This document shows, piece after piece, positions 34,693-60,489 of a stretch of DNA of 64,000 bases. The translations under genes were made by a program, and so were the position numbers. How positions within the stretch are numbered: the stretch's first letter is position 1; every line of letters begins with the position of its first letter. The DNA lies in the NCBI GenBank assembly GCA_905160935.1, contig CAJHZI010000492.1, positions 15,001 through 79,000 on the forward strand. The letters run 5' to 3'. The notes under the pieces were generated by a model that was given only the letters and a program-made list of their open reading frames with translations, made no database searches and was not told the DNA's origin. The stretch is from Enchytraeus crypticus (taxonomy: Eukaryota > Annelida > Clitellata > Enchytraeida > Enchytraeidae).

Positions 34693-35866
34693 ACCGGATC
34701 TACCACAGGTGCCCTTATAGCACTCTATCAGAGTATATCACAAATGTTGTCAAGTAGTCCCTTTGTCAGAGTCATTGTTCTAGATTTTAGCAAAGCTTTT
34801 GATCGGATCAGACATTCAACTGTTATTGAAAAATTTGCTGATCTGGACATACCATCTTGCGTCCATAATTGGCTTGTTAGTTTCTTTACTGGCCGTCAAC
34901 ATTGTACTAAATTTGATGGCAATGTATCCTCTACTGCAAATATTTCAGCTAGTGTTGTACAAGGTTCAGCTATTGGTCCCGCTTCATATTCCATTACTGC
35001 TTCGGATTTAAGACCTATGCACTCTTATAATGACATTATTAAGTTCGCTGATGATGCATACATCATTATCCCATCTCAGTATCTTTATACCACTGACGAT
35101 GAACTTTGCTAACATTGACTGATGGTCCAGTAAGAACAATCTACAGTTGAATAAGTCGAAATCCCGTGAACTTCTTTTCCATCCTCCGCGATCTAAATTT
35201 CTAGCAAGTTTTGTGCCACCGCTTCTAGATGGATTTGTCAGAGTCAACACCTTGAAGTGCTTAGGTGTTACACTGCAATCCAACTTTTCTTTTTCTGTCC
35301 ACGTGGATGATATAATTAACAGTTGCTCTTCTAATCTTTTTGCCATTCGCACTCTAAAATCAAAAGGTCTTAATTCTGACCTAATTGTCACTGTCTTTAA
35401 ATCTATTGTACTATCCAAGTTAACATATGCATCGCAATTTTGGTGGGGTTATGTTGGTTCCTCGGAGAGTGAACGCCTTGAAGCCTTCCTCAGGAAGGCT
35501 ATAAGATGTAACTTCTATGATGGAGTACGATCTTTTGCGGATATCGCTGCTGATGCAGATGAGAAATTGTTTAACGCTATCATCAGTAACAAACAGCATG
35601 TCCTGCACCGGCTTCTTCCGCCGCTTAAAGATAGTGTTAACTTTAAGCTCAGGGAGAGGGCTCACCCTTTCTCTTTACCATCTAAGCGCACACCTTTGAT
35701 GGATAAGAACTTTATAATTAGAATGCTATATAAAGACTCTTATTAAGTTTTTTTAAACAGTGTCTGCTTATGTTTATTACTTTCTATATTGCCATTTGTG
35801 TGTGTGTACGTTTTCTGCGGTATGTCAGATTTCATGTAATAAACGAATATAATAATAATTTGAACA
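34693..35866 (+). pseudogene. 5'-truncated Jockey/CR1-type LINE, reverse transcriptase remnant
   Basis: A reading frame begins abruptly at GSTTGALIALY, part of the RT block that precedes VIVLDFSKAFDRI (34765-34803, first catalytic Asp motif). It continues with HNWLVSFFTGRQ and VVQGSAIGPASY, and has the catalytic motif KFADDAY (FADD) near 35,050. Near 35,105 a one-base shift and a TGA break the frame; it resumes SKNNNLQLNKSKS and runs to 35746 with CLGVTL, CSSNLFAIRTLKSKGL and a C-terminus RMLYKDSY typical of these LINEs. A short 3'UTR ends in AATAATAATT. Role when intact: reverse transcription of LINE RNA at a nicked target. Inactive here. Confidence 0.88.
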
Positions 35867-46047: not shown

Positions 46048-48448
46048 ATGGTCAGCTCGTTGGGTGACGTCGACAAACCTCAGTCTTTAATCCCAGGATC
46101 TAGCGTAGGCTTGCAGTTCCTCGGCACTCCGGCAGTGCCTTCCAACGAACAGCCGCTGGACCTGACCTTTAACAAAGGAACGTGCTCGGGGAGTGAATAC
46201 GAGGCCACTGACTTGACGGTTGCTTCTGCTAGAAATCTGGGCTGCGATGGTGCCGAGTGTCCGCTAGATCTTTCCGTTAAGAAACGAAAACTGAACAATG
46301 GCGGCGCACAGCCTAGCTGCGCAACGAAGTCTACCTCAGAAATGCAGCAGAGCGTTGCGCACGGTAGATCTACTACGCCGCAGGTAAGAAAACCTCATTC
46401 GAAATATTTTTCTTCACAACAGAATCTATCCAAGTCTAGGCAGATGACCCACCATCAAATGCTGGCTCAGTCTAAGCACTACCACCAGGGACCGGCACGA
46501 GATGGATTGGCCTCGAGGACAGGTGTTACTCCTGGAGTAATTGACGCGAGGGATCAGTGCGGTGGAATGCCGTGGCAGAGGAATACGTCCTCATCCTACT
46601 TGTCTGGCTCTGCTGGTCATTCCACTGTTTCAAAACCAGTTCTTCCAGGAGCCGGATTTGATGCAGCTTCCAGCTTCGGAGATCCCTTCCAAAGTCCCAG
46701 CAGACTTCCGGGAGATGATCCCGTGCTGAGGGCCGCCCATCAGGTGGATAGTTCTATCCAGCAGATTGTTCAAACGAGAATTGGAAACTTTAGTTCAGTG
46801 ATGCAAGGCAGCAAACCTCATCCGGGCGCCGTTCCGGTCATCACTCATTCCGGAACCTTTCTTGCCCAGCAGGCGCATGGTGGAAAGTCAGCAGGGACGG
46901 GTGCTGATACCTCCGGAGCCCGAGTAAACTCGAGGTATGTCTCTCCGGGTCTCGGCGGTCCTGTGGACTCCATGTGCGGATTTTTTCCTTCAGCGGCTTA
47001 CTCGTTAGAAGCAGGAGCTCGTCATGCGCATCTTTCCCTACCTCAGAGATCTGTGTTCAACCCGTCGTTGATGGCTTCTCGAGGCGCCTATCGATATCCA
47101 ACTGCGGCGCACTCGATGCAGACTAGCGATAGGATGCTTGACTCAAATCTAACGTCATCCGCGATGACTCAGAGCTCTCTTGCTTCGAATATCTGTACAG
47201 CTTACACGTTCTCAGGCGGAAGCGTGATCGACCACTCTACCGTTCAGCTACCGTCAGCCTTCCAGCTGCATCCTTCTGGGGACTCCACCACCTTCTCGGG
47301 ATTTACTGGTGAGATGGCTGCTGCAGATCAGGGTGGAATTGCCTTAAATCAAGACTCTAGATCCGATTCGAATTCTATTTTTGGATACGGTATCGGTCTT
47401 TTGACTTCGAATAAAATCCGACTGCCATCCGGAAAACAAAAATCTACTCCAGAAAGTGACGTAATCGATCTGACCGGGTCCAGTCCTACGGAGGGTTCTC
47501 CCGTAGCTTCGGCGTGCGACACGGAAATGGACTCTTCGATAAATAAATCAAATCCCACTAGCACGGAAAGTGTGTTGTCTGAAATGTTGACGTCAGACCA
47601 TTTAGTATACACTGGCGCCACAGATAGAGTCAGATCAAATGTGGGAGGTACGAATAGATGTCAGGAAATGTCTGGGAAACAGTGTTCCAGTGGTCTGATA
47701 GGTGCGAGTGTGGGAGACTCTTCCACTCACCTGGAGTTATCAACTCAGTTGTCAGACCACGCTTCCGCAGTCCACCCTGCTAGAGCGATGACTTTGGGTG
47801 AGAATTCTGGAGTTGGTGGCAAGGGTATCCCAGAAGATCTGACGGGATCGAGGTCTTCGTTTATCCTGGAGAGTGATCTGAGAGCTCGACGTCTCTCTGG
47901 TCAGAGATCCTGCGGAAATAAAATCATTCCCGTGGCCAACGTCCAGCCGATCATGAAGAATCAACCTCAGGTGTCCTCCGCTGCCCCCCAAGCGTCAACC
48001 CAGTCGTCGTCAGAAGATCAAAATGTTCCGTCAGGTGGAGGAATGGAAGAGGAGAAAAGTTCAGCTGATTGTTTGTCCGGTGATGGCCCCGGAAAACTGT
48101 CTGCTTCCGGTTATTCCACGATAGTTAATCATACTGGAAAGGCGAAGATGGCATCTGGTACTGTTGGAATGGCTACAGGAGGAGGTTTTGGCTCAAGCGT
48201 TGGAAGGAATCTGATGCATCCTTCGAAAAGTCATCATATGGAATTCGTTAAGTTTATTAGTCAGAAATCTATAGGGACTGCCGAGTCCTTCGAATCCACC
48301 CAGAACATGGGATCAGGTGGATCTCCGGGAGTCGCCTCGAGGAAGAGGAAGAGGTTGTTTCCACCTGGAGAAGAGTCGTTAGCTGGAAGAGATCCCGGAG
48401 CGGATACTGGTCAACAGAATCCCTATAGGACTCCGTCAGATAGAGATG
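46048..48448 (+). CDS. BCOR: BCOR exon 1 of the visible set (large Ser-rich exon)
   Basis: A single uninterrupted frame encodes 800 codons plus one base, far longer than expected by chance in this AT-rich DNA. It is Ser/Gly/Thr-rich and probably mostly disordered. Visible motifs are PLDLT at 46153-46167 and PLDLS followed by VKKRK at 46261-46290. A VIDLT hydrophobic core followed by Ser lies at 47461-47475 and resembles a SUMO-interaction motif. A basic RKRKR cluster starts at 48340. PxDLS is the known CtBP docking motif. The donor is ATG|GTAATT and ends in phase 1; the next exon completes a GAA codon. The frame is open back to a TAA at 45979, so the exon probably starts upstream in the frame-disrupted block. 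Confidence 0.9.
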
Positions 48449-51400
48449 GTAATTGTTCGCTGATTTGCTTATTGAAATTTAAATTCTTGATAGGAGTTCT
48501 TATGTGTTTTACTAAATTCTTGATATAAATTCTTCTATGTTTTACCAAATTCTTGATATGAGTTCTTCTGTGTTTTACTAAATTGTTGATATGAATTCCT
48601 CTGTGTTTTACTCAATTCTTGACATGACTTCTTTATTTTACAAAATTCTTTATATATGTTCTTCTGTGTTTTACTAAGTCCTTGATACGAGTTCTTATAT
48701 GTTTCACTAAATTCTTCATACGAGTTCTGTGGTTTACTAAATTCTTGATATAAATTCTAGAGATGGGAATCGAATCGAACCGAACCCGAACCGAACCGAA
48801 CCATGAAATCTAGAATTTTGACCGAACCGAACCCGAACCCAGACTCTGGCCGAACCCGAACCGAACCCGAACCCAGACTTCGTCCAAACTGAACTGAACC
48901 AAACTCTTGTAGTTCCTTTCTTCTTCACCAGCCTGACCTTAAATGAAGATAGTAAGAACAATACAAATGTATATTAGTTTTTGCATTTACATGTCTTACA
49001 GTATCTAACAGCGTATATTCAGCTAAGGCTGGTTCCGACACAAATTTTTAAATTGTAGCGGCGCAAAGGAATGGTAGCGGGAAGCGAGACGGGCCTACAG
49101 AAGATAATGGATAGTCTGAATGATACGGCATTGAAATATCGAATGCAGATTAACATCAAAGAGACAAAAGCGATGAGAGTATCCCATAAAAATTTGAAAA
49201 TGTATGACTCAATCTAGGTTGATTTGTTCTTGTTAATTCAAATTATGAATTTTTTCAAATTTTAGTGTGCTACCTTAATATTTTTGCAGCCAGATTTACA
49301 AATAATTATATATGATATTCTATATGTGTTAAGACTATCTGAAGAAAATAATTAGTTTATAACAGTAAATAATTTTGCACCATGGCATGCAATAATTTCA
49401 AAACTATTTTCGTAACTTCATAATTGATCTGAGAGTTTCAAATTTGATACCCTAAGGTAAATTATGAAGCTTATTACTGGTCAGTTTATATCATACGGTG
49501 TACATTATGATCATTTTCTATGGAAGTACACGTGTTTACTATATCATCTTTACTTTACATTTTTATGCTTCTAATTGCACTTTGTCTCTGAAATTTTGGA
49601 TCAAATTTTAGCCAAGACATTTCCACTTAATTATAAACGTATCTAATATAGGCCTATAGGCCTATAGTGACAAAAAAATTTAAAATTTGATGAAGCATTC
49701 TATTTGCTCGTTATAATCAAAGAGAATATTTCAGATACAATAATAAAGCTAAATATCTATATTATGAACATTTTTGGTCAACTTACAATATTTTAAGAAA
49801 TGTACAGGAATAAATACCACTTCTCTCTTTTTTACATTGTCATATTTTTACCCAGGTGAAAAAATGTGGCAGCTATTATGACTTTATGAATTTTTAAGCA
49901 TATTTACCATAAACCATTTTAAACATGTTTGTCTTAACCATGATTATTATAAGTAAAGTTAAACAATTGCAACATTATCAAAACCAAACTATTTCGAACT
50001 CGAATCGAACTCTTGCGAGTTGGAAAGCAAGCCGAACCCGAACCGAACCCGAACCCTTGTTAGAACCGAACCCGAACCGAACCGAACTTTCATTTTCAAC
50101 GAACCGAACCCGAACTCTGGAAATTCATAAAATTCCCATCTCTAATAAATTCTTCTGCGTTTTACCAAATTCTTGATATAAATTCTTCTGCGTATTACCA
50201 AATTCCTGATATGAGTTCTTATATCAAGAATTTGGTATATTCAGTCTAGATATGGGTTCTTTTGTGATTTACTAAATTCTTGATACGAGCTCTTCTAAAT
50301 TCTCGATATGAGTTCTTCTGTGTTTTACATAGTTCTTGATACGAATTCTTCAATTGCAGAAGACTCTGGTTCCCAGGACTCCTGCAATACGTCCAGTGGT
50401 CAGCAGGTCAGTACGTCCAGTAGTCAGCAGGTGGACCACGTGAGGTCAGTCAAGCGACAGCTCCTGATGACTCGAGCAGAAGTCGACTCTGAGACCTCTG
50501 GCTCAGGGGAGCTGCACGCTAGCGGTGTTATATCGGAGGCTGGTAGGAGCGTTTATCCGGGTCGTTCCGTCGCCGATGTGCCAGGAGCCGCCACGTGTTC
50601 TGAATCCAGAAAACACTCGGCCATTGAATACCTAGACGATGATGATAATGGATTAAATGATGATTACGAAGATGATAGTAATGTGGGAGAGGATGATAAC
50701 GCTTGTCGTTATGGAGATGGTTCGAATGACAAAGCGGATAAGAAGAAGTGTAAGTTTGTTGGAAAGAAGGAGAACGCTGGAAGAGTTGGAATGAAAATTG
50801 GAAGTTCTCAGTCACGTGATCAGCTTATGGCGTCATCTGACGCCGTTCTGGAGAGCAGTCCTGTAAGAGTCTTAGATGATTTACTAATGATTTACCAGTG
50901 ATTATTTACTTCTTAGATGATTTACTGATGATTTATTGGTAAGAGTCTTAGATAATTTTTATAATGATTTACTACTGTCTTAAATGATTTACTGATGATT
51001 TATTAGTAACCTCTTGGTTGATTATTCCTATTCCCCAGTGTAAAGTAAACAGTTCTATTGATGTATTTAGTATTCCTATTCCACGGTGTAAAGTACTACA
51101 ATTCTACTCATGCATTTATCGCAGAATGACTTTAAGGTCAAGCGTAAGTACAAGAAGCGTGCCCAGACCTCGGAGAGCATCCAAGCTTCTGCGTCGTCTG
51201 ATGCCAACACCCGTGACCCTGCCTCTGAATATCTGGAACGATCTGACAGCGTCACCTTCCATCAGTATTCCATCGAGTCCTTCGCAGAGCGACACGTGAC
51301 CTTGACCTCCGGAACCCCCTCCAGGTCGAGAGGAGGGCGAAACTGGTGTAGGATTCGAGGTACGGGTGGAAAGCCGAGGATTCCTTGTGGATTCGGTGGT

Positions 51401-52377
51401 GGAGAGAATGATTCAGTGACCTTGTCGGGTGAAGGTCATGTTGATGACAATCATGATCAGTTTGAGGTCGATGAAGGTCATCAGCGTGTTAGTCAAGGTC
51501 ATGTCTGGGACGGTGGTTCGTTGGGTGATGGTGTGGCAAGTGTTAGAGGAGGAAGAGGTAGAGGGAGAGGTAAAGGTACGTGTAGAGGTGCCGATAGACA
51601 GATGATGAAAGGAACGAGTTTGTATGACGTCACACAGGACGCTGAGTCATCGCAATCCATGGACTCTGTAATGTATCAGGTTAGACGATGGCTTTATGTA
51701 CCGGGCACTTGTGGTTAAAATTCATTTCTCAAATTATAAGAAAATTATAATTATCAAAAAAATTATCAGAACAATTATCAAAATTATCAAAATACAAATT
51801 ATCAAAATTATAAGATGACGAAGATTATTTTGCTAAAAATTTTATAACAAAGCGTTTGAAAACATTCGTCTTTGTTCCCATGTAGAATAATTCAAAGTAA
51901 CTTACATCTCACAGGCTCTCTGTAATCCTATAGGACAACTTGCAATTTGTGACAGATGTAGCTCAATTACTAAGCGTAATTTGTGAGTTTTTTCTTTCAA
52001 TCTATCAATCGATTAATTGATCACTCGAATATTTGAAGGAAAAGCCGATTATTTTGCTGAATTATTAATTTTAAGCAGGAAGGCACCTCCGATTTGCCTG
52101 CTAAACCCAAAAGCATGTCGCTACTGCAACGAGCCGCCATGTTTAAGAGCAAAGAGAAGATGAAGTCAGGTGGCGCCAAACTGCTGCTGAAGAAAGGGGA
52201 GGAGAATATGGATGATGTCTGTGAGGGTGGGGGTGGGGAGGTGGGTGGAGAGGAAGAGGAAGATAAGAAGGTGGAGGGAGAGAGCCCCCTCCATAGAGCT
52301 GCTAGGTTGGGCTATGAGGTTGGTATTATACCCACTCTCTCTCTCTGTCTCTTTGTCTCTCTCTCTTTCTCTCTCTG

Positions 52378-52420
<43 letters not shown>

Positions 52421-52487
52421 GTCTGTCTCTGTCTGTCTATCTGTCTGTCTGTCTGTCAGTCTCTCTCTATCTCTCTATCTCTTTCTG

Positions 52488-52520
<33 letters not shown>

Positions 52521-52715
52521 GCCTGGCAGTCTGTCTGTCTGTCTCTCTGTCTGTCTCTCTGTCTGTCTGTCTCTCTCTCTTTCTGTCTCTCTCTCTTTGT
52601 CTCTCTCTCTCTTTCTCTATCTGTCTGTCTGTCTATCTGTCTGTCAGTCTCTCTGTCTGTCTATCTGTCTGTCTATCGGTCTGTCTCTGTCTCTCTCTCT
52701 CTCTCTTTCTTTCTG

Positions 52716-52764
<49 letters not shown>

Positions 52765-52766
52765 TA

Positions 52767-52814
<48 letters not shown>

Positions 52815-53030
52815 TCTTTCTCGATCACATTTGTATTCTACGAAGTAATAGATCCAAGGTAAATATTCTTAATTAAGCTTTCGTGCTATGTAGGAGTTTT
52901 TATTTATTGCTTTGGACTGATTTTCTGGATTTTGGAATTTGCACCGTTTTTGGACCTTCTTTTTCCTCGCCGGCTTGATTTTCTCTCAATAGTGCTCGAT
53001 GTTTTCATTGATGGCTGTAGCACGTAATTG

Positions 53031-53078
<48 letters not shown>

Positions 53079-55942
53079 GGAAATTTATGGTTTTTATATG
53101 TTTTTCCATTGCTTGCCTCTATGTCTGCTTAGACTACTCATCTTCTGCGCTCTGGACATTCTAAACGCTTGCAAAGGATAAGTAATCATGTGCTGCATTG
53201 AATTATTTATTACTGCACCTTTTTTTAAGAACCAATCCAAACCCCATATTGTTTTTGCTATATAATGTAGTAACGAATTGACCAATCGATAAATAAATAA
53301 ATGAATTGACTTAATTTGTTAATATTTTATTTATTTAATTTGTGAAATTTTAAAAAATAGATAAACGAATTAACCGGCTGATAAATTATATGATTAATCG
53401 TTGAAGCGCGATAGTAAATGCTGGATTGATTTATCAATTGGTGGATTGATCGTAGGATTTGGTTTGGTACTATTTGACGAGCGGAGGGATACACGCTAAC
53501 GTGCAAGACAGCTACGGTCAGACGCCTCTGCACGTCAGCTGCGCCAACAGCGCATTAATACAAATCACTCGCGTGCTACTACAGCACGGTGCCCATCCAA
53601 ACAGCAAAGCCACGGATGGAACGAGGTCAGTCTAGTTATAATACCCGTTCCAGAGTATGTCCCATATATGATATACGAGTGCTTGATATGTTTCATACGT
53701 ACTTGACATATGTTTCATAAGTCCTTGACATATGTTTCATAAGTCTTTGACATATGTTTCATACGTCATTGACATATGTTTCATACGTCCCTGACATATG
53801 CTTCATACGATACATCCTTGTCATGTGTTTCATACGTCCTTGTCATGTTTCTTACGTCCTTGACCTATGTTTCATACTTCCTTGACCTATGTTTCATACT
53901 TCCTTGACCTATGTTTCATACGTCCTTGACACGTTTCATACGTCCTTGACACGTTTCATACGTCCTTGACATGTTTCATACGTCCTTGACACGTTTCATA
54001 CGTCCTTGACATGTTTCATATGTGATTGACATGTCTTATATTTCCTTGACCTATGTTTCATACGTCCTTGACCTATGTTTCATACGTCCTTGACCTATGT
54101 TTCTTACGTCCTTGACCTATGACATGTCTTTCTCATGCTACGGTTGATCAATCAGCTGTTTGACGTTGTTTCATAGTAGCCCATAGAGTTTAGTAGGAGA
54201 TGACGATCATTTATAAAATTTAAATATGCCGTCGAAACAGACCATAAACTAAATTTACTGTACAGCACTGCATGGTACTATATAATACACTTATATTGTT
54301 CCGTTTAGTTACATTTTGATATATTACATTATATTGATTACATTGACTGCATCTTATTTTATTTCATTATATGGAAGTTCATTTCAATGTATTGCATTGC
54401 ATTTCATTGTATTATATATGCGCACAGGCCGCTACTGGAGTGTATTTTGTTGTATTGTTATCCGTGCTGTGTAATTGTTGCTGAAGTATAGACTAACCGT
54501 GGACTGCGCCTTTCGTAGAAGGCGACAAAGAATTTAGATCCAAAACCGATTTCGGAAAAGGCATTCGGTTGGTGAGAGCCTAGGCTTCTGAAATTGCTGC
54601 AATTTTCTAATCCCGACCCTAGTTGAACTGAGATCCACGGGAAGATAATGATGATGCATGTATTGTACTGTATTGTATTATACCGTATTTTATTGTATTG
54701 CATTGTGTTGTACTGTATTGTATTGTATTGTATTGTACTGTATTGTATTGTATTGTACTGTATTGTATTATACTGCATTGTAATGTATTGCATCTTGCTG
54801 TATTGTATTGTACTGTATTATATTGTACAGTATTGTATTGTACTGTATTGTATTATACTGCATTGTAATGTTTTGCATCTTGCTGTATTGTATTGTACTG
54901 TATTATATTGTACTGTATTGTATTGTACTGTATTGTATTGTATTTTACTGTACTCTATTATACTGTATTGTATTGTAGTGTACTATACTGTATTGTATTG
55001 TATTGCATATACGCGCAGGCCACTGCATGTCGCAGCCTCTAACAATGACCTGAAGACTGTTCGACTGCTGATCTCACACGGAGCAGATCTCTCTCTAGTC
55101 AACGACAGCAAGAAGTCTATCATTAGACTGGTCCGCAGCAAAGACATGAAGCATTTTCTAAATGGTTAGAATATAAAATAAAACGGCACACTGGGTCAGG
55201 AAGTAAAGATGAATGTTAAAGGCCCATTTCCTCCTTCTTCTCCATGGTTATTAGTAATCTTCGCCTTTTGATGGCCCATCAATTGCAGCCGGCGCGGATT
55301 TAAGAATTACCTTCCATCACTCTGGGATTTTTTCCGTCAAAGCCGTCAACACTCTTCCAAGGTGGTCACCCACAAAGTTCTAGCCGAGGCCGATGTAGCT
55401 TAACTTAAATTATTGACGGGCAACTAAAGCAAATGCGCTAAATCCCACCTTCTAGGTATATTTATGCGATTTGAGTTGAGAGTATCAGTCTAACCGAATC
55501 TATACTATCTTATTAGGTCGTTGACCTTACTGAGCTTACTTCTATCTCATTAATGTTAAACTAATCAAGATTCTACGTTCTCTATTTGCACTTCAACAGT
55601 TCAGTTTAGTTCTCTTTTGTTGAAATATTGTTTAATATTTTACTCGCTTCTCTACTTAGATTTCCTATTTTCCTACCGTGTTGTGTCCGGTTTGCTGAAG
55701 AATAGACCAACCGTGGACTGCACGAGTCGTACAAAAGTCGACAAAACACTAAGAACCAAACCATCGTACGAAAGGGCATTCGGGTGGTGCGCTTTTAGCC
55801 TCCAGAAAATGCTACAAAATTTTCTATATCCTGACCCTAGTTAATTGGGATTCACTGGAAGATAATGATCTAGTTAGGTCTCAAAATCGTATGCGTATGT
55901 AGCTGCTCTGGTTCAATGATTGATTGATTGATTGATTGATTT

Positions 55943-55987
<45 letters not shown>

Positions 55988-58900
55988 CTGATTGACTGAT
56001 TGACTGATTGATTGATTGATTGATTAATTAAGCTATTGATTAATTGAGTGATTGATCGATCGAGATTGATTGATTAATTCTGTAATTGATCGATCGAGAT
56101 TGATTGACTATTTGAGTGTTGATCGATCGAGATTGATTGATTGAGTAATACTTCATGTTTAAAATATTTTAGGGATACTCAATGATTTGACGGGGGGTGA
56201 CGAGGGAACGGAGAGCCCCTGGGAATTCAACCTGTTTCACAAATCTTCCAGTAGTGCCATGGCCAGCGGCCTTGACCTGCTTTCAGATGTACCGTCTGAC
56301 GACGAGACAGAATCGATGAGCGCGGTAGTGGAGCAGAGTGAGCACACCCGAGATCTGCTGCCGGCACATAATCTCAAATTAGACAGCAACAAAGGGTAGG
56401 CTAAAGGATATTCAGATTACGATTCCTTGTATTTATTGTATACTTAATTAAAAAATCAAAGGTGCCATCAATTTTAGTTTGTATTCACTCACTAAAAGGC
56501 TAAGGCTGGTAAAGCTAAAGTTAACGTCAGTTTCCTCACTCGAAAGCCTAATGGAAGGTCGGCGACTGATATTCTTACTCTGATTTAGCGCTTAGTAAAG
56601 AAAACCAAGTATATAATTCTGTCGCGAAATGTATAACTTTACTTTGGGTTCTGTAGTGATTTTTCGTTTGCTTTCTGAGTGTCTGCCTTACAGGGCTCGT
56701 AAGAAACACTTGCTGTACTTTTTACTTTTTGCTTCTTTTTCTATATCGGGCTCTAAACTATGTCTTCCAGACCCATCGTGAAAAATTACATTTATTTGAA
56801 TTAGTATTCTCCACTAAAGTTTTCTATTTATATTTAGTTTTTGTTTACAAATACTTTTTCCGTATTGAATATAAACAGTAAGCATGTAGTGGCTACAGAA
56901 ACGTGTTTTACCGTTATTCACCGAAAGCCCTAAATATCTTAAGTTTCATTTCTAAAATTTTTATCTTATAACTCCTAAATTTATTTCGGAAAATGTAAAA
57001 CTTAAATTATAAAATTTCTTTTTTAAATTCGTCCTAAATTTTTAAGGTTCATTCTAATAAGGATTTGTCGTAAATATAATACTATAATACAATATAATCA
57101 TCAACATCATCATCTTCCCTTAAATCCCAGTTTAACAACCAGGGTCGGGATACGAATAGACAATATCCATTCGTTTAATATAATAACGTACATAATATAA
57201 TTATGACGATATTATATTATCTATCGTATATAATATAATATTCTATACTGGCTATTGTTTGATTTTGATAAATGTACTGTTTGATTTGTCACAAATATAC
57301 CATTTGTCATAAATGTACATGTAGAGCCTGTCTATTGTCTATTGTCAGTGCTCAATGTTGTCATAGACGATAGTAGCACTCTAATTCTGTTGTTGTTGTT
57401 GATGTTGCGTGTGTTGCAGACCGCGGAGCTACCACTACGTAACGGACGTGATGGACAGAGCGGGCAGTGACCTGACGGCGGAAAACTTCGCCGTGCGCTA
57501 CGACAACCTCAACTACCTCACCGTCAGTCGTGGCATCATGCTAGAGGCCATGACAATATCGGGAGCTGACGTCACCAGCCTAGGCTCTTCCGTCGTCACA
57601 AAGACCGATGTACTGGAAGAGAAGGTTGTCTGTGATAGGAAAGAATCTAAAGTTGCGGCCGGCGGTAGCAAGTCGGCGGGTAGGTATCAGAAGAGAGGCA
57701 TAGTGTATGAGTCAGTGGGTGACGGAGCGGAGAAGGTTGAGGCTGGGCTTGTAGAGCCTGAGGTGCCGCAGAGAATTCTTAGGACGAGCTCGCTGAAGGG
57801 TAAAGAGGTTCTGAATAAATCGCTTGGAAAAGGCAGGCTGAGTAAGGGAAAGGGTAGAACAGTGGAATCTTGTCCGGGGAGTGCGGAACTTGATCTGCAG
57901 ACTCCTGAGAAAGCGGTACTCTGCAAGAAGGAATTATCTACTTCATGTGGGACAGAGGTGATTGCGTGCTCAGTTAAATCAGAGACTTGTGAAAAATTAT
58001 CAGACCTTGGTGATGTTTGTGCTAAAACTGGCGCGGGTTTGGCAAATAGACCGTTAGGATTGATTGATAAAGAAATAAAGTTCGTTCAGATTGACGACGC
58101 TCTGAGATGTTACCTGGAAATCGAATCGTCAGCTCTGCGGCTAAATGCCGATAACTGCGTCAGACTGACGGGGAAAATAAGCGAAGAATTGTTTCTTCTG
58201 GGCGACATAAAGACGGAATCGCAAGAGAGGTGCAGAAAGGATGACAACAAGGGAGACCTGAAGCGATCCAGCAGCAAAGTGAACAAGATCGATCTCTCTC
58301 TCAAGATGATCAATACCAATTTGAAATGGCTGCCGTCTGAAACAGGTGGGTCTCTGATAATTAAGACCAAGGTACCCAAACTGTCCATTAAATCTCTGAA
58401 GTCCAAGCTATCAGCTCGGGATCAGTTACAAGTGAAAGGCGATGATGTATCTCTACTACCTGATCCGCCAGGCGACGACACATTATACGATGACTCTCGC
58501 TCTATTCCTGAGGAACCACCGCTAGCGGGTCCATCCGCCCGCCCCGATTCGGAAGTGATTTATAATAAAACGTTGGATAGAAGATCTCGTGGCCGGCCGC
58601 TGAGCTGTAAAGGATTGGGACGTAAGTTAAAGGCGACTCTGAAGCAAAGTCTCAGCGTCATCTCGCCTTCAGTCAGACTCTCGTCCTTGCCTCAGATCCA
58701 GACTCGCAGCAAGAAGGATCGATCTGGTGCCGTGTCGAAATCTGCGCCCGGATCAGACGTCGATAGTCCTGATATCGGATCGGAAGTCCCGAGCGGTAGG
58801 TCCTGCTACGGATTGTCCTCCTCTCTGAAGGATTGGAGAGTTGCGTCTCCGTGCAAGGTCGTGCTATCTCAGATAGATAAATCTTCAGCTCCGGGTTTTG

Positions 58901-59778
58901 CCAAGTGGAGCGTATCGAGGTTTTCATCCACCGAGAAGCGTGGCAGTCGATGCAAGTCCTTAACGACGCTGAAGCTGTTGAACAGATCTACTTCTGCGGA
59001 TAATGTCAACAATCCGACGTCCGGAGAGAGTCAGTCGAGTCCGATCATCCTGAGCATTCCGAAGTTCTGTAGCCAGAGGTCGTTGGGTGCGAGAAAAGGG
59101 GGGAAGTGTAAGGGATTGTCGAGTAAAAAGTCTGATAGTGTAAACACTGCGGTGAGTGTAACTGAGCCGGGAAGTAATAGCGTTGGGACAGACGATTCTG
59201 TAGATCAGGATGTGTGCGCTGGGGAAGGTTTAGATATTGTCACTGAGTGGAGTGAACATTCTGAGAAAATAGCAAAAGCTTTACCGGAAATCGGTGAGAG
59301 TAAGATGACGTCACGACCATCTGACAAAACAAAAGCTAAAGGCACCGGCTCGGCTGAAGAGAAACTGTCATTTCTTGAGCATTCTGCTACACTGAATTCT
59401 ACGACCACCTCCGCTTTTTCAAAAGTCAAACTGAAGAAAAACGTTCGTGCTGCGATCTATCCAAAACCTCATTCCAAACGTCTGAGTGACTCATCGTCGG
59501 TAACTTATGACGTCACTTCTGAAAGCTCGGAGGTGTCTCTGGTGGCACAGGCTGCTGGGGACGTCTCCAATGCCTCGGCCGACAGCGCATCATCAGCGAC
59601 GAGCGGGCCGGAGACTCTGCTGCCGGTCCTGGAGAAGCACGGCAGCGAGAAGGAAAAGTCCGGAGGTCAGAGCGAGATAAGTACACTGCCGGAGATCCAG
59701 GACACAAAAACGATGAACCCAGCGGGATCATGTGAGGAGGAGGACATTGAGATGCCTCAGCTGACTCTATACGCTTGA
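46048..59778 (+). CDS. BCOR: BCOR-like BCL6 corepressor, eight exons (5' part missing)
   Basis: The gene is read as join 46048-48448, 50360-50862, 51125-51679, 52079-52318, 53456-53625, 55019-55164, 56173-56395, 57420-59778. The total is 6597 nt, or 2198 residues plus TGA. All seven introns are GT-AG and every junction phase matches (1,0,0,0,2,1,2). BCOR proteins are nuclear scaffolds of the variant Polycomb complex PRC1.1; ankyrin repeats are followed by PUFD, which binds the PCGF1 RAWUL domain. Order seen here: two PLDLS/T motifs (residues 36-40 and 72-76), basic clusters (78-81, 765-769), an acidic run, an RG-rich stretch, ankyrin repeats (about 1221-1338), linker, PUFD start (about 1404-1465), then a long Ser/Lys-rich tail. 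Against vertebrate BCOR the collinear matches include RAARLGYE, DGTRPLH, LNDL, LLP..N and GPR. The ATG at 46048 is only the first Met in the open frame; the true start lies upstream. The long tail is unusual, since vertebrate BCOR ends with PUFD. Confidence 0.93.
48449..50359 (+). other. BCOR intron 1 with interrupted minisatellite
   Basis: The intron begins GTAATT and ends TTGCAG. It consists of a degenerate array of about 33 bp (TTCTTGATATGAGTTC plus TGTGTTTTACTAAA) at 48485-48757 and 50153-50345, split by a 1387-bp hAT-like element. Confidence 0.88.
48758..50144 (+). mobile_element. hAT-like non-autonomous element with CCGAAC arms, copy 2
   Basis: Termini are TAGAGATGGGAAT and its exact inverse. 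Both sides are flanked by the perfect 8-bp duplication ATAAATTC (48750-48757 and 50145-50152). TAG-type termini and 8-bp duplications are hallmarks of the hAT superfamily. Each end has CCGAAC/CCCGAAC repeats in the same orientation. The middle is AT-rich with no transposase frame. It lies inside BCOR intron 1. Confidence 0.88.
50360..50862 (+). CDS. BCOR: BCOR exon 2 (acidic region)
   Basis: The acceptor is TTGCAG|AAGAC and the donor CCT|GTAAGAG. The exon gives 503 nt, entering in phase 1 and leaving in phase 0. It begins with Ser/Gln-rich sequence (SGQQ/SSQQ repeats), continues with a strongly acidic Asp/Glu run at about 50,623-50,706, and ends with a Lys-rich stretch (KADKKKCK) before ESSP. 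There is no catalytic or folded domain. Acidic and Lys-rich blocks ahead of the ankyrin repeats fit the poorly conserved middle part of BCOR. Confidence 0.88.
50863..51124 (+). other. BCOR intron 2, with duplicated donor and acceptor-side sequence
   Basis: The first half is a degenerate repeat of GATGATTTACTGATGATTTA. It includes a second GTAAGAGTCTTAGAT at 50939, identical to the true donor. The second half is a tandem duplication (51023-51070 and 51071-51120) starting TATTCCTATTCC. Confidence 0.85.
51125..51679 (+). CDS. BCOR: BCOR exon 3 (basic start, RG-rich stretch)
   Basis: The acceptor is ATCGCAG|AATGAC and the donor ATCAG|GTTAGA; phase is 0 on both sides and the length is 185 codons. 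It starts with a basic segment (KVKRKYKKR), suited to nuclear localisation or nucleic-acid contact, and has an RG/RGG-like cluster at about 51,541-51,594. It ends in Ser/Asp-rich sequence. RG clusters can bind RNA and be arginine-methylated in other proteins; that is only a possibility here. Confidence 0.86.
51680..52078 (+). other. BCOR intron 3
   Basis: An AT-rich intron. AATTATCAAAA units repeat at about 51,735-51,815. Nothing else is recognised. Confidence 0.85.
52079..52318 (+). CDS. BCOR: BCOR exon 4 (Lys-rich linker and first ankyrin helix)
   Basis: The acceptor is TAAGCAG|GAAGGC and the donor TATGAG|GTTGGT; 80 codons, phase 0 on both sides. It encodes a Lys-rich segment, an acidic EEEEDKK run, then ESPLHRAARLGYE, the first ankyrin motif. 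This lines up with the vertebrate BCOR ankyrin start, where RAARLGYE is identical. The open frame runs on past the donor into a CT-rich array only because that simple repeat lacks stops; this is not coding. Confidence 0.93.
52327..52823 (+). repeat. CT/CTGT polypyrimidine array in BCOR intron 4
   Basis: About 500 bp of CTCTCT and CTGTCTGT on the sense strand, starting within 10 bases of the exon 4 donor. The three open frames reading Ser-Leu-Ser/Cys-Leu-Ser are artefacts of the repeat. Confidence 0.95.
52920..53085 (-). mobile_element. SINE-C copy, antisense in BCOR intron 4
   Basis: On the - strand it contains the family core, a stop-start of AATTACGTGCTACAGCC and then AACATCGAGCACTATTG. 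The following segment matches the 29465 copy (AGCAAGCCGG-like, ACGGTGCA, TCCAGAAAATC). An (ATT)n tract lies at 53036-53078. Confidence 0.65.
53456..53625 (+). CDS. BCOR: BCOR exon 5 (central ankyrin repeats)
   Basis: The acceptor is TCGTAG|GATTTG and the donor ACGAG|GTCAGT; phase 0 in and phase 2 out. The peptide contains the ankyrin consensus elements GQTPLHVSC and LLQHGAHPN and ends KATDGTR, matching the vertebrate DGTR just before the next repeat. This exon confirms that the gene has a real ankyrin fold and not just a lone motif. Confidence 0.95.
53668..54130 (+). repeat. Minisatellite in BCOR intron 5 (TACGTCCTTGACCTATGTTT)
   Basis: About 22 units of 18-22 bp with the core CATACGTCCTTGACATG. 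Units shorten in the middle (GACACGTTTCATA). Confidence 0.93.
54461..54657 (+). mobile_element. SINE-B full-length copy in BCOR intron 5
   Basis: Collinear with 55677-55870 and 28249-28455: TTGCTGAAGTATAGAC, CCGTGGACTGC, GGCATTCGGTTGGTGAG, then CCCGACCCTAGTTGAACTGA and a GATAATGATGATG tail. Confidence 0.75.
54658..55010 (+). repeat. TATTG/TACTG pentanucleotide array before BCOR exon 6
   Basis: Repeated TGTAT TGTAC units fill the last part of intron 5 up to 8 bases before the acceptor. The Cys/Ile/Val/Leu/Tyr open frame across it is spurious. Confidence 0.93.
55019..55164 (+). CDS. BCOR: BCOR exon 6 (last ankyrin repeat)
   Basis: The acceptor is ACGCGCAG|GCC and the donor AAATG|GTTAGA; phase 2 in and phase 1 out. 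The codon AG|G gives Arg and is followed by PLHVAASNNDL and VRLLISHGADLSLVND, a canonical ankyrin repeat. It ends KHFLNG, matching the end of the BCOR ankyrin block. The acceptor follows immediately on a TATTG-type pentanucleotide array. Confidence 0.95.
55186..55412 (-). mobile_element. SINE-5S copy A (5S rRNA-derived SINE), antisense in BCOR intron 6
   Basis: On the - strand it opens with AAGTTAAGCTACATCGG, then CCTCGGCTAGAACTTTG, TGGGTGACCACCTTGGAA, which aligns through the internal promoter region of animal 5S rRNA (AAGCTAAGC, GGTTAGTACTTGGATGGG, GACCGCCTGGGAA). A non-5S body follows (GCGCCGGCTGCAATTGATGG) and is shared with 63448-63800. 5S-derived SINEs (SINE3 class) are known in several animals. 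Confidence 0.75.
55677..55870 (+). mobile_element. SINE-B full-length copy in BCOR intron 6
   Basis: Reads GTGTTGTGTCCGGTTTGCTG, ATAGACCAACCGTGGACTGC, AGGGCATTCGGGTGGTG, then CCTGACCCTAGTTAATTGGG and GATTCACTGGAAGATAATGA. The best-preserved copy of the family here. Confidence 0.78.
55918..56150 (+). repeat. GATT tetranucleotide array in BCOR intron 6
   Basis: (TGAT)n with GACTGATT variants, then three longer units containing GATCGATCGAGATTGATTGA, ending about 20 bases before the exon 7 acceptor. Confidence 0.95.
56173..56395 (+). CDS. BCOR: BCOR exon 7 (ankyrin-PUFD linker and start of PUFD)
   Basis: The acceptor is TTTTAG|GGATAC and the donor CAAAGG|GTAGGC; phase 1 in and phase 2 out. ILNDLTG matches the conserved YLNDLQG after the ankyrin block, and SPWEF matches a Trp-Asp/Glu-Phe site in the vertebrate linker. 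The end, LLPAHNLKLDSNKG, aligns with the first PUFD beta strand. Confidence 0.93.
56500..56570 (-). mobile_element. SINE-A 3' fragment in BCOR intron 7
   Basis: GCTGGTAAAGCTAAAGTTAACGTCAGTTTCCTCACTCGAAAG on the + strand (split here as GCTGGTAAAGC and AACGTCAGTTTCCTCACTCG) is the reverse of the SINE-A 3' module. Confidence 0.65.
57098..57178 (-). mobile_element. SINE-B 3' fragment in BCOR intron 7
   Basis: CATCATCATCTTCCCTTAAATCCCAG followed by the reverse of the CCCTGGTTAAACTGGGAT motif and ATACGAATAGA. It is the inverse of the SINE-B tail at 15535 and 821. Confidence 0.65.
57335..57408 (-). mobile_element. SINE-C 5' end abutting the BCOR exon 8 acceptor
   Basis: The - strand reads (AAC)n, AATTAGAGTGCTACTATCG, TCTATGACAACATTGAGCAC. 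Its AAC-rich start, seen as GTTGTTGTTG on the + strand, ends about 11 bases before the exon 8 splice acceptor. Confidence 0.7.
57420..59778 (+). CDS. BCOR: BCOR exon 8 (rest of PUFD plus long C-terminal extension)
   Basis: The acceptor is GTGTTGCAG|ACCGCGG. The first base completes Gly, giving GPRSYHYVTDVM, which aligns with GPR....SDVL of vertebrate PUFD; the match continues to about residue 1465. The exon then runs to TGA at 59776, about 786 residues in all. Residues about 1631-1680 (starting EIKFVQIDDAL, ending LFLLGD) resemble the second half of PUFD, so the domain may be split by about 170 inserted residues. The rest is Ser/Lys-rich with repeated SLKSK/SSLK patterns and no recognised domain. 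One unbroken 2.36-kb frame argues strongly that the tail is translated. Confidence 0.93.
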
Positions 59779-59806: not shown

Positions 59807-60028
59807 AGGATTGACGGCGTCAGTTGCGGATTGACGGCGTCAGTTGCGGATTGACGACGTCAATAAGGATTGACGGCGGCAGTTCAGGATTGACGGCGTC
59901 AGTTGAGGATTGACGGCGTCAGTAGCAGATTGACGGCGTCAGTGGAGGATTGACGGCGTCTGTGGAGGATTGACGGCGTCAGTTGAGGATTGACGGCGGC
60001 AGTTGAGGATTGATGGCGTCAGTTGAGG
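59807..60028 (+). repeat. 20-bp tandem array in BCOR 3'UTR (GGATTGACGGCGTCAGTTGA)
   Basis: About eleven units begin 29 bases after the stop codon. Each unit has the near-palindrome TGACGGCGTCA. Unit spacing is close to 20 bp, with a few variants (GACGACGTCA, GACGGCGGCA). Confidence 0.95.
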
Positions 60029-60489
60029 ATATTAGGGTATCTGAGGCGTCGGGTCCTTCTTCTTGTCGGCTGCACCCTTAAAGACGTTCGTGCACCCTAA
60101 ACTGAATCTGGGGTCTTGAGTCACAGGTCACTAAAGATCTATTAAACCTTCGAGCCTAAATAAGAAGACTCTCAACTGCCTCTGCCTCTAATCTAGTACT
60201 GCCATGACGTGGTGATATGAAGATAGACGTTTATCATCGGTCTACAAAGATGTACTATTTTATGATTGTGATCTGTGGCAATGTTGCTATTACTATCATC
60301 ATCGATAAAACATAGTATTATATAATATGTAGTTAGACTTTGCGCTAAGTGAAACGCTTGGTCTGTTAGGTGTGTATTTACCTAGAGGCTGTAGATGCCA
60401 CTTTGTATTTATTGACATTTGAATCGTTTTTATTGACTAACGGATTAAGTCAATATCTCATAAATAATGAATTAATCCGTGAATAAATT

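What the first reader, a model, noticed from the sequence alone, without database searches (positions are those of the whole stretch)
57420..59778. BCOR with a ~730-residue tail after PUFD, and PUFD possibly split by an insertion
In vertebrate BCOR, PUFD is the C-terminal domain and ends shortly before the stop. Here the first half is clear (LLP..N, GPR...DVM, NLNYLTVSRGIMLEAM) but the frame then continues unbroken to 59778. A block at 58072-58217 (IDDALRCYLEIESSALRLN..., EELFLLGD) resembles the second PUFD half (LLFSC...LEAFNP..., IQTLLGS). If correct, about 170 disordered residues have been inserted inside the PCGF1-binding domain, something I do not know from vertebrates.
Basis: partly seen in the sequence, partly recalled or inferred. 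Interest (0 to 1): 0.75.

Follow-up and report, generated by a model that had tools for sequence, protein, structure and literature searches.

The report
Animal BCOR with interrupted PCGF1-binding domain
The BCOR gene of this unnamed animal, part of a gene-silencing complex, seems to carry about 170 extra amino acids inside the domain that grips its partner PCGF1, plus a long tail behind it; the extra coding sequence looks real, but that the domain resumes after it is only moderately supported.

Summary
The open frame is real. An eight-exon BCOR-like gene model (46048-59778, 2198 aa) ends in a 2359-bp exon that starts inside PUFD, the PCGF1-binding domain. The first PUFD half is found by Pfam (below its cut-off), by PDB sequence comparison and by AlphaFold2. 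The frame then stays open for 170 codons (57562-58071) that look like coding sequence, not intron. That match is moderate: about 0.5-2% of controls score as high, Pfam does not extend into it, and AlphaFold2 builds it only when the given alignment already places it there. If right, the helix 2-strand 4 loop is 173 aa instead of 21-26, followed by a 543-aa tail. A tail after PUFD is not unique: the nemertean Lineus has one of about 400 aa behind an uninterrupted PUFD. One BCOR locus and a PCGF1-like RAWUL exon were found in the genome. Verdict: probably a lineage-specific loop expansion; a new variant of a known kind.

The parts
46048..48448 (+). First exon of the BCOR gene model (first ATG of the frame used; true 5' end not determined); PLDLT and PLDLS motifs at aa 36 and 72
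50360..50862 (+). BCOR exon 2 (model numbering)
   Evidence: AG acceptor, GT donor, open frame
51125..51679 (+). BCOR exon 3
52079..52318 (+). BCOR exon 4, start of the ankyrin repeats (SPLHRAARLGYE)
   Evidence: 40% identity to Lineus BCOR from aa 1217 on
53456..53625 (+). BCOR exon 5, ankyrin repeat
55019..55164 (+). BCOR exon 6, ankyrin repeat (RPLHVAASNNDLKTVRLLISHGAD)
   Evidence: Pfam Ank E 9.5e-7
56173..56395 (+). BCOR exon 7: linker and PUFD strand 1 (LLPAHNLKL, 56355-56381)
57420..57561 (+). Exon 8, first part: rest of the first PUFD half (PRSYHYVTDVM to VSRGIMLEAMTIS)
   Evidence: AlphaFold2 pLDDT about 68-77 over residues 1-40 in both models
57562..58071 (+). Coding insert between helix 2 and strand 4, 170 codons, no confident structure
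   Evidence: coding, not intron; pLDDT under 50 over most of it
58072..58146 (+). Candidate second PUFD half: strand 4 EIKFVQI, helix 3 DDALRCYL, strand 5 EIESSALRL
   Evidence: for; for but alignment-dependent: 61, 67; against or silent: 33, 34, 35, 36, 37, 41, 78
58147..59778 (+). C-terminal tail of 543 aa (Ser+Thr 23.6%, K+R minus D+E = +11) and stop codon

Best explanation
This is a BCOR orthologue of an invertebrate, the only copy found in its genome. Its PUFD domain is complete in principle but has a very long loop: strand 1 to helix 2 lie in exon 7 and the start of exon 8; about 170 residues without predicted structure form an expanded loop between helix 2 and strand 4; strand 4-helix 3-strand 5 follow at 58072-58146; then a 543-residue tail. 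Inferred mechanism: as in BCORL1 bound to PCGF1, the first and last strands of PUFD join the beta sheet of the PCGF1 RAWUL domain; the loop joins elements in the middle of the fold and can bulge out without preventing this, so BCOR still docks on PCGF1 and helps build PRC1.1, with loop and tail as flexible arms that may carry binding or modification sites. Shown by sequence: gene model, coding insert, first PUFD half, a PCGF1-like partner exon. Moderately supported: the second half. Inferred: binding and any role of loop and tail.
Confidence: 0.55

Rival explanations
1. The second PUFD half has been lost or has drifted beyond recognition; the domain ends after helix 2 and everything behind it is disordered tail. 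PCGF1 binding would then be weak, or carried by the first strand or by other contacts.
For: No Pfam extension into the block and no gain over controls, PSSM at chance, and AlphaFold2 without second-half rows finds no second half.
Against: The best local profile hit is above about 98-99% of controls and falls in the most ordered window of the tail; both other invertebrate proteins and both human paralogues keep the second half; a PCGF1-like RAWUL is still present.
Confidence: 0.32
2. Alternative splicing: a transcript leaves exon 8 near 57523-57610 for an unseen exon, or removes an in-frame 567-base stretch (57523-58089), giving a compact PUFD; the long frame is a second isoform.
For: GTCAGT at 57523 and TTCGTTCAG ending at 58089 would give a phase-0 splice of 567 bases. 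The spliced protein scores 23.5 bits against the four-sequence PUFD model, the unspliced 21.7, the first half alone 18.6.
Against: The 510 bp 57562-58071 are exon-like in GC and open frame, and 57565-58071 in codon phase; the acceptor has a poor pyrimidine tract; the splice would remove both helix 2 and strand 4; Pfam changes only from 16.5 to 18.4 bits, no more than natural or control continuations give (17.3-19.3). No second-half exon was seen by profile from window 55165 to 25 kb beyond its end (best E 1.6).
Confidence: 0.09
3. Gene-model artefact: assembly error or retained sequence joined BCOR to unrelated coding sequence.
For: No transcript data here; the in-frame codon score is not the best of six in 3 of 18 sliding windows of exon 8, nor for 57421-57564 and 58072-58290.
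Against: One continuous open frame of 785 codons plus stop; in-frame score best in 15 of 18 sliding windows; only this locus was found.
Confidence: 0.03

Closest known systems
BCOR of Lineus longissimus (P0111, named by NCBI uncharacterized protein LOC135494394 isoform X2)
   Same: Ankyrin repeats, linker and start of PUFD (40% identity over 232 columns), two N-terminal PLDLS motifs, and a tail of about 400 aa after PUFD
   Different: PUFD is contiguous (Pfam 3-105 of 114, 52.1 bits); the tails show no similarity beyond shuffles (114 of 300 as high)
Human BCOR and BCORL1 PUFD (4hpl, 8hcu, 2n1l, 4hpm, 5jh5)
   Same: First-half sequence pattern and, in the alignment-dependent model, the fold over both halves
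   Different: Loop of 21 or 25 aa instead of 173; full-length BCOR stops shortly after PUFD (recalled)
P0122, metagenome-derived BCOR-like protein of 1440 aa
   Same: Ankyrin repeats plus PUFD; its IDMVRLDDTVRHMLGVET is the closest match to the window block
   Different: Contiguous PUFD (38.6 bits) at the end of the protein; no tail

Membership tests
BCOR/BCORL1 | Ankyrin repeats followed by a linker and the start of PUFD, collinear with a known BCOR | tested here: met
   E 1.1e-35 to P0111; 40% identity over 232 columns; Pfam Ank E 9.5e-7 and PUFD first half
BCOR/BCORL1 | Orthologue by tree or synteny | not tested
   Only two other invertebrate BCOR proteins were found; no other BCOR-like locus in the genome at E 1e-6
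PUFD domain (PF16553) | First half: strand 1, GPR, helix 1, strand 3, helix 2 | tested here: met
   Pfam positions 10-70 (sub-threshold), PDB 8hcu_C E 0.0042; modelled with pLDDT about 68-77
PUFD domain (PF16553) | Second half: strand 4-helix 3-strand 5 | tested here: inconclusive
   For: HHalign 4 of 200 and 4 of 372, P0122 match. Against or silent: Pfam constructs, PSSM, HMMER, control model
PUFD domain (PF16553) | Score above Pfam's curated cut-off of 29.5 bits | tested here: not met
   14.4-19.0 bits in the gene's own order; at most 21.0 in joined constructs. So the whole domain is not filed here as a proven PUFD
PUFD domain (PF16553) | Binds PCGF1 RAWUL | not testable with these tools
   A PCGF1-like RAWUL is present at G000:C24:293844-294014; no complex modelling on hand

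The most novel reading that the evidence does not exclude
PUFD here is a split domain: two halves about 170 flexible residues apart come together, perhaps only on PCGF1, and the loop plus 543-aa tail give BCOR a new, regulated contact surface for PRC1.1.
Probability: 0.45. Interest if true: 0.55.

Novelty: new variant of a known kind. Interest (0 to 1): 0.42.

Why it matters
PUFD helps decide which PCGF protein BCOR joins and so which Polycomb complex forms (PMC5310723, passages). A natural PUFD with a very long internal loop would show where the fold tolerates insertion and would let one test whether its two halves can dock separately. BCOR internal tandem duplications drive most clear cell sarcomas of the kidney (start of abstract of PMC9964999; that they lie in PUFD is recalled), so tolerated natural insertions are a useful comparison.

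Tried and rejected
Each looked good by eye; the Pfam constructs did not support them. A short hydrophobic pattern is easily over-read in a tail of about 740 aa, and that caution holds for the alignment I kept.

PSSM detail: leaving out BCOR the candidate at aa 1628 ranks first in the tail; leaving out BCORL1 or P0122 aa 2000 does, leaving out Lineus aa 1450 does.

Second PUFD half elsewhere: six-frame HMM scan of 1198 open stretches (18 aa or more) from window 55165 to 25 kb past the window end; best E for the second half 1.6. Second PUFD gene in the genome: two sub-threshold hits (E 1.33 and 1.72), whose frames looked unrelated. Similarity of this tail with the Lineus tail: none beyond shuffles. 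PDB sequence search of the spliced piece: besides four PUFD chains it listed two unrelated chains, one (3kbb_A, E 0.2) ahead of three of the PUFD chains.

Relatives: three protein searches used. The first was flooded by ankyrin proteins (236 matches, best 120 listed; only the 7978 candidates sharing most words were scored). The second gave P0111 and P0122 (2 of 456 candidates), the third only P0122 (1 of 74). The comparison therefore rests on two invertebrate proteins plus human PDB chains. The MAFFT alignment with the two full-length proteins misplaced exon 8 and was not used; one with first-half pieces put helix 2 pieces onto the block and was not used either.

Literature: full-text searches (listings and abstract starts seen only) for PUFD/BCOR/PCGF1/RAWUL; BCOR/invertebrate/PUFD/evolution; BCOR/PRC1/Nematostella/PCGF1; CG14073/BCOR; BCOR/PUFD domain/ankyrin/orthologs; PRC1 complex diversity/animal evolution/BCOR. 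Among the papers listed I saw none whose title or abstract start is about a PUFD insertion in an invertebrate. PMC5310723: passages seen. PMC4003909 and PMC5088048, the structure papers, are not held and were not seen.

Searches of the genome for RYBP (PF17219) and CXXC (PF02008, for KDM2B) did not complete, so other PRC1.1 subunits were not checked. A promoter/terminator scan of the 3' end gave nothing of use.

Full report
What is there. The window lies in a genome of 524 Mb in 802 contigs, by gene content an animal. On the + strand it holds a BCOR-like gene. Using splice sites and frame I joined eight exons (46048-48448, 50360-50862, 51125-51679, 52079-52318, 53456-53625, 55019-55164, 56173-56395, 57420-59778), giving 2198 aa with one stop, at the end. 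The start ATG is provisional. The protein has PLDLT and PLDLS motifs near its start (Lineus has two PLDLS), ankyrin repeats, a linker, the first half of PUFD and a very long last exon. The best BCOR relative found is a PUFD-bearing protein of the nemertean Lineus longissimus (P0111, E 1.1e-35; 92 of 232 columns identical). A search of the whole genome with the ANK-to-exon-8 protein returned seven matches at E 1e-6: four pieces of this locus and three weak ankyrin matches.

First PUFD half. Pfam PUFD matches profile positions 10-70 of 114 at 14.4-19.0 bits, below the curated 29.5. PDB chains of human BCOR and BCORL1 match the same part (8hcu_C E 0.0042; 4hpl_A 0.42, 2n1l_A 0.69, 4hpm_A 1.5; an unrelated chain, 3kbb_A, at 0.2). 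A MAFFT alignment with first-half pieces of Lineus and P0122 sets VSRGIMLEAMTIS against IRSAIFRQQVELS and LPRVEFVQSMESS, so helix 2 belongs to the first block. Both AlphaFold2 models give residues 1-40 a pLDDT of about 68-77.

The insert is coding. From 57562 to 58071 there are 170 codons without a stop. GC is 0.494; the seven introns lie at 0.281-0.370, the eight exons at 0.473-0.542. Of 20000 Markov-1 sequences of the same length and neighbour frequencies none was stop-free. Codon scores trained on the gene's other exons favour the frame over 57565-58071 (0.26) against the other five (all negative; 9, 24, 9, 1 and 7 stops). Along exon 8 the frame scores best in 15 of 18 sliding windows; it does not for 57421-57564 and 58072-58290 taken alone, where another frame with stops scores higher. 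An in-frame 567-base splice (57523-58089) is possible on GT/AG grounds but has a poor acceptor tract and would remove helix 2 and strand 4.

Does PUFD resume at 58072? Against. Nine constructs joined the first half to the block at various points: eight end at Pfam positions 61-72, one reaches 87 at 21.0 bits, and that join leaves out the part that matches. The three that keep the whole match score 17.9-18.6 bits and end at 70-71; three controls with other tail pieces score 18.0-19.3 and end at 70-76; the natural continuation scores 18.0 and ends at 71; a fourth control joined after strand 3 scores 17.3 and ends at 59. A PSSM of four PUFDs scores the candidate at chance level. HMMER picks the place as a second domain but at -2.4 bits, and a second-half HMM over the open stretches does not list exon 8 among the 21 rows shown. 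BCOR, BCORL1 and Lineus second halves taken singly land elsewhere, none above chance (470, 716 and 906 of 1000 shuffles as high).

Register. In the supported alignment FVQIDDALRCYLEI faces LVEFTNEIQTLLGS (BCOR), MVRLDDTVRHMLGV (P0122) and LLRLDCGVRELLDI (Lineus). The loop from helix 2 to the first aligned residue of strand 4 is then 173 aa (57562-58080), against 21 (BCOR), 25 (BCORL1), 21 (Lineus) and 26 (P0122), counted by hand on the alignments. Its length varies even among normal PUFDs, so it is a natural place for an expansion. The tail behind strand 5 is 543 aa, Ser/Thr-rich; a Pfam scan of the spliced C-terminal 859 aa listed only PUFD.

The tail. Lineus BCOR also continues about 400 aa beyond a contiguous PUFD, so a tail after PUFD is not unique. 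The two tails show no similarity beyond shuffles (114 of 300 as high). P0122 ends at its PUFD.

Mechanism. In the solved PCGF1-BCORL1 complex the PUFD strands that extend the PCGF1 sheet come from its N and C termini (PMC5310723, passages). Here these would be LLPAHNLKL in exon 7 (56355-56381) and EIESSALRL at 58117-58143. A loop in between can expand without breaking that surface. A PCGF1-like RAWUL exon exists (G000:C24:293844-294014, 40.2 bits, the only one of 13 matches over the cut-off); in a query strung from nine RAWUL-like frames it gave the best PDB matches, PCGF1 at E 1.3e-5 ahead of BMI1 at 3.4e-4. Binding, and any role of loop or tail, is inference.

Judgement. A known protein and a known domain with, most likely, an unusual lineage-specific loop expansion and a long tail. 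New variant of a known kind; moderate interest.

Noticed in passing
59807-60030: Tandem array of a 20-bp unit (AGGATTGACGGCGTCAGTTG), 11.2 copies, starting 29 bases after the BCOR stop codon; possibly a minisatellite in the 3' UTR.
   Followed up: partly
46048-48448 (aa 36 and 72 of the gene model): PLDLT and PLDLS motifs (CtBP-binding type by recall); Lineus BCOR has two PLDLS (aa 95, 112) and P0122 one (aa 80).
   Followed up: partly
34693-35746: Open frames that look like a reverse transcriptase of a non-LTR retrotransposon (by eye).
   Followed up: no
L017 and L018 (G000:C108:13149-13241 and C184:824016-824108): RAWUL-like fragments with the same open-frame translation on two contigs: recent duplication or uncollapsed haplotypes.
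   Followed up: no
52319-53455 and 54627-55018: Introns of the gene rich in CT-type and TATTG-type simple repeats.
   Followed up: no
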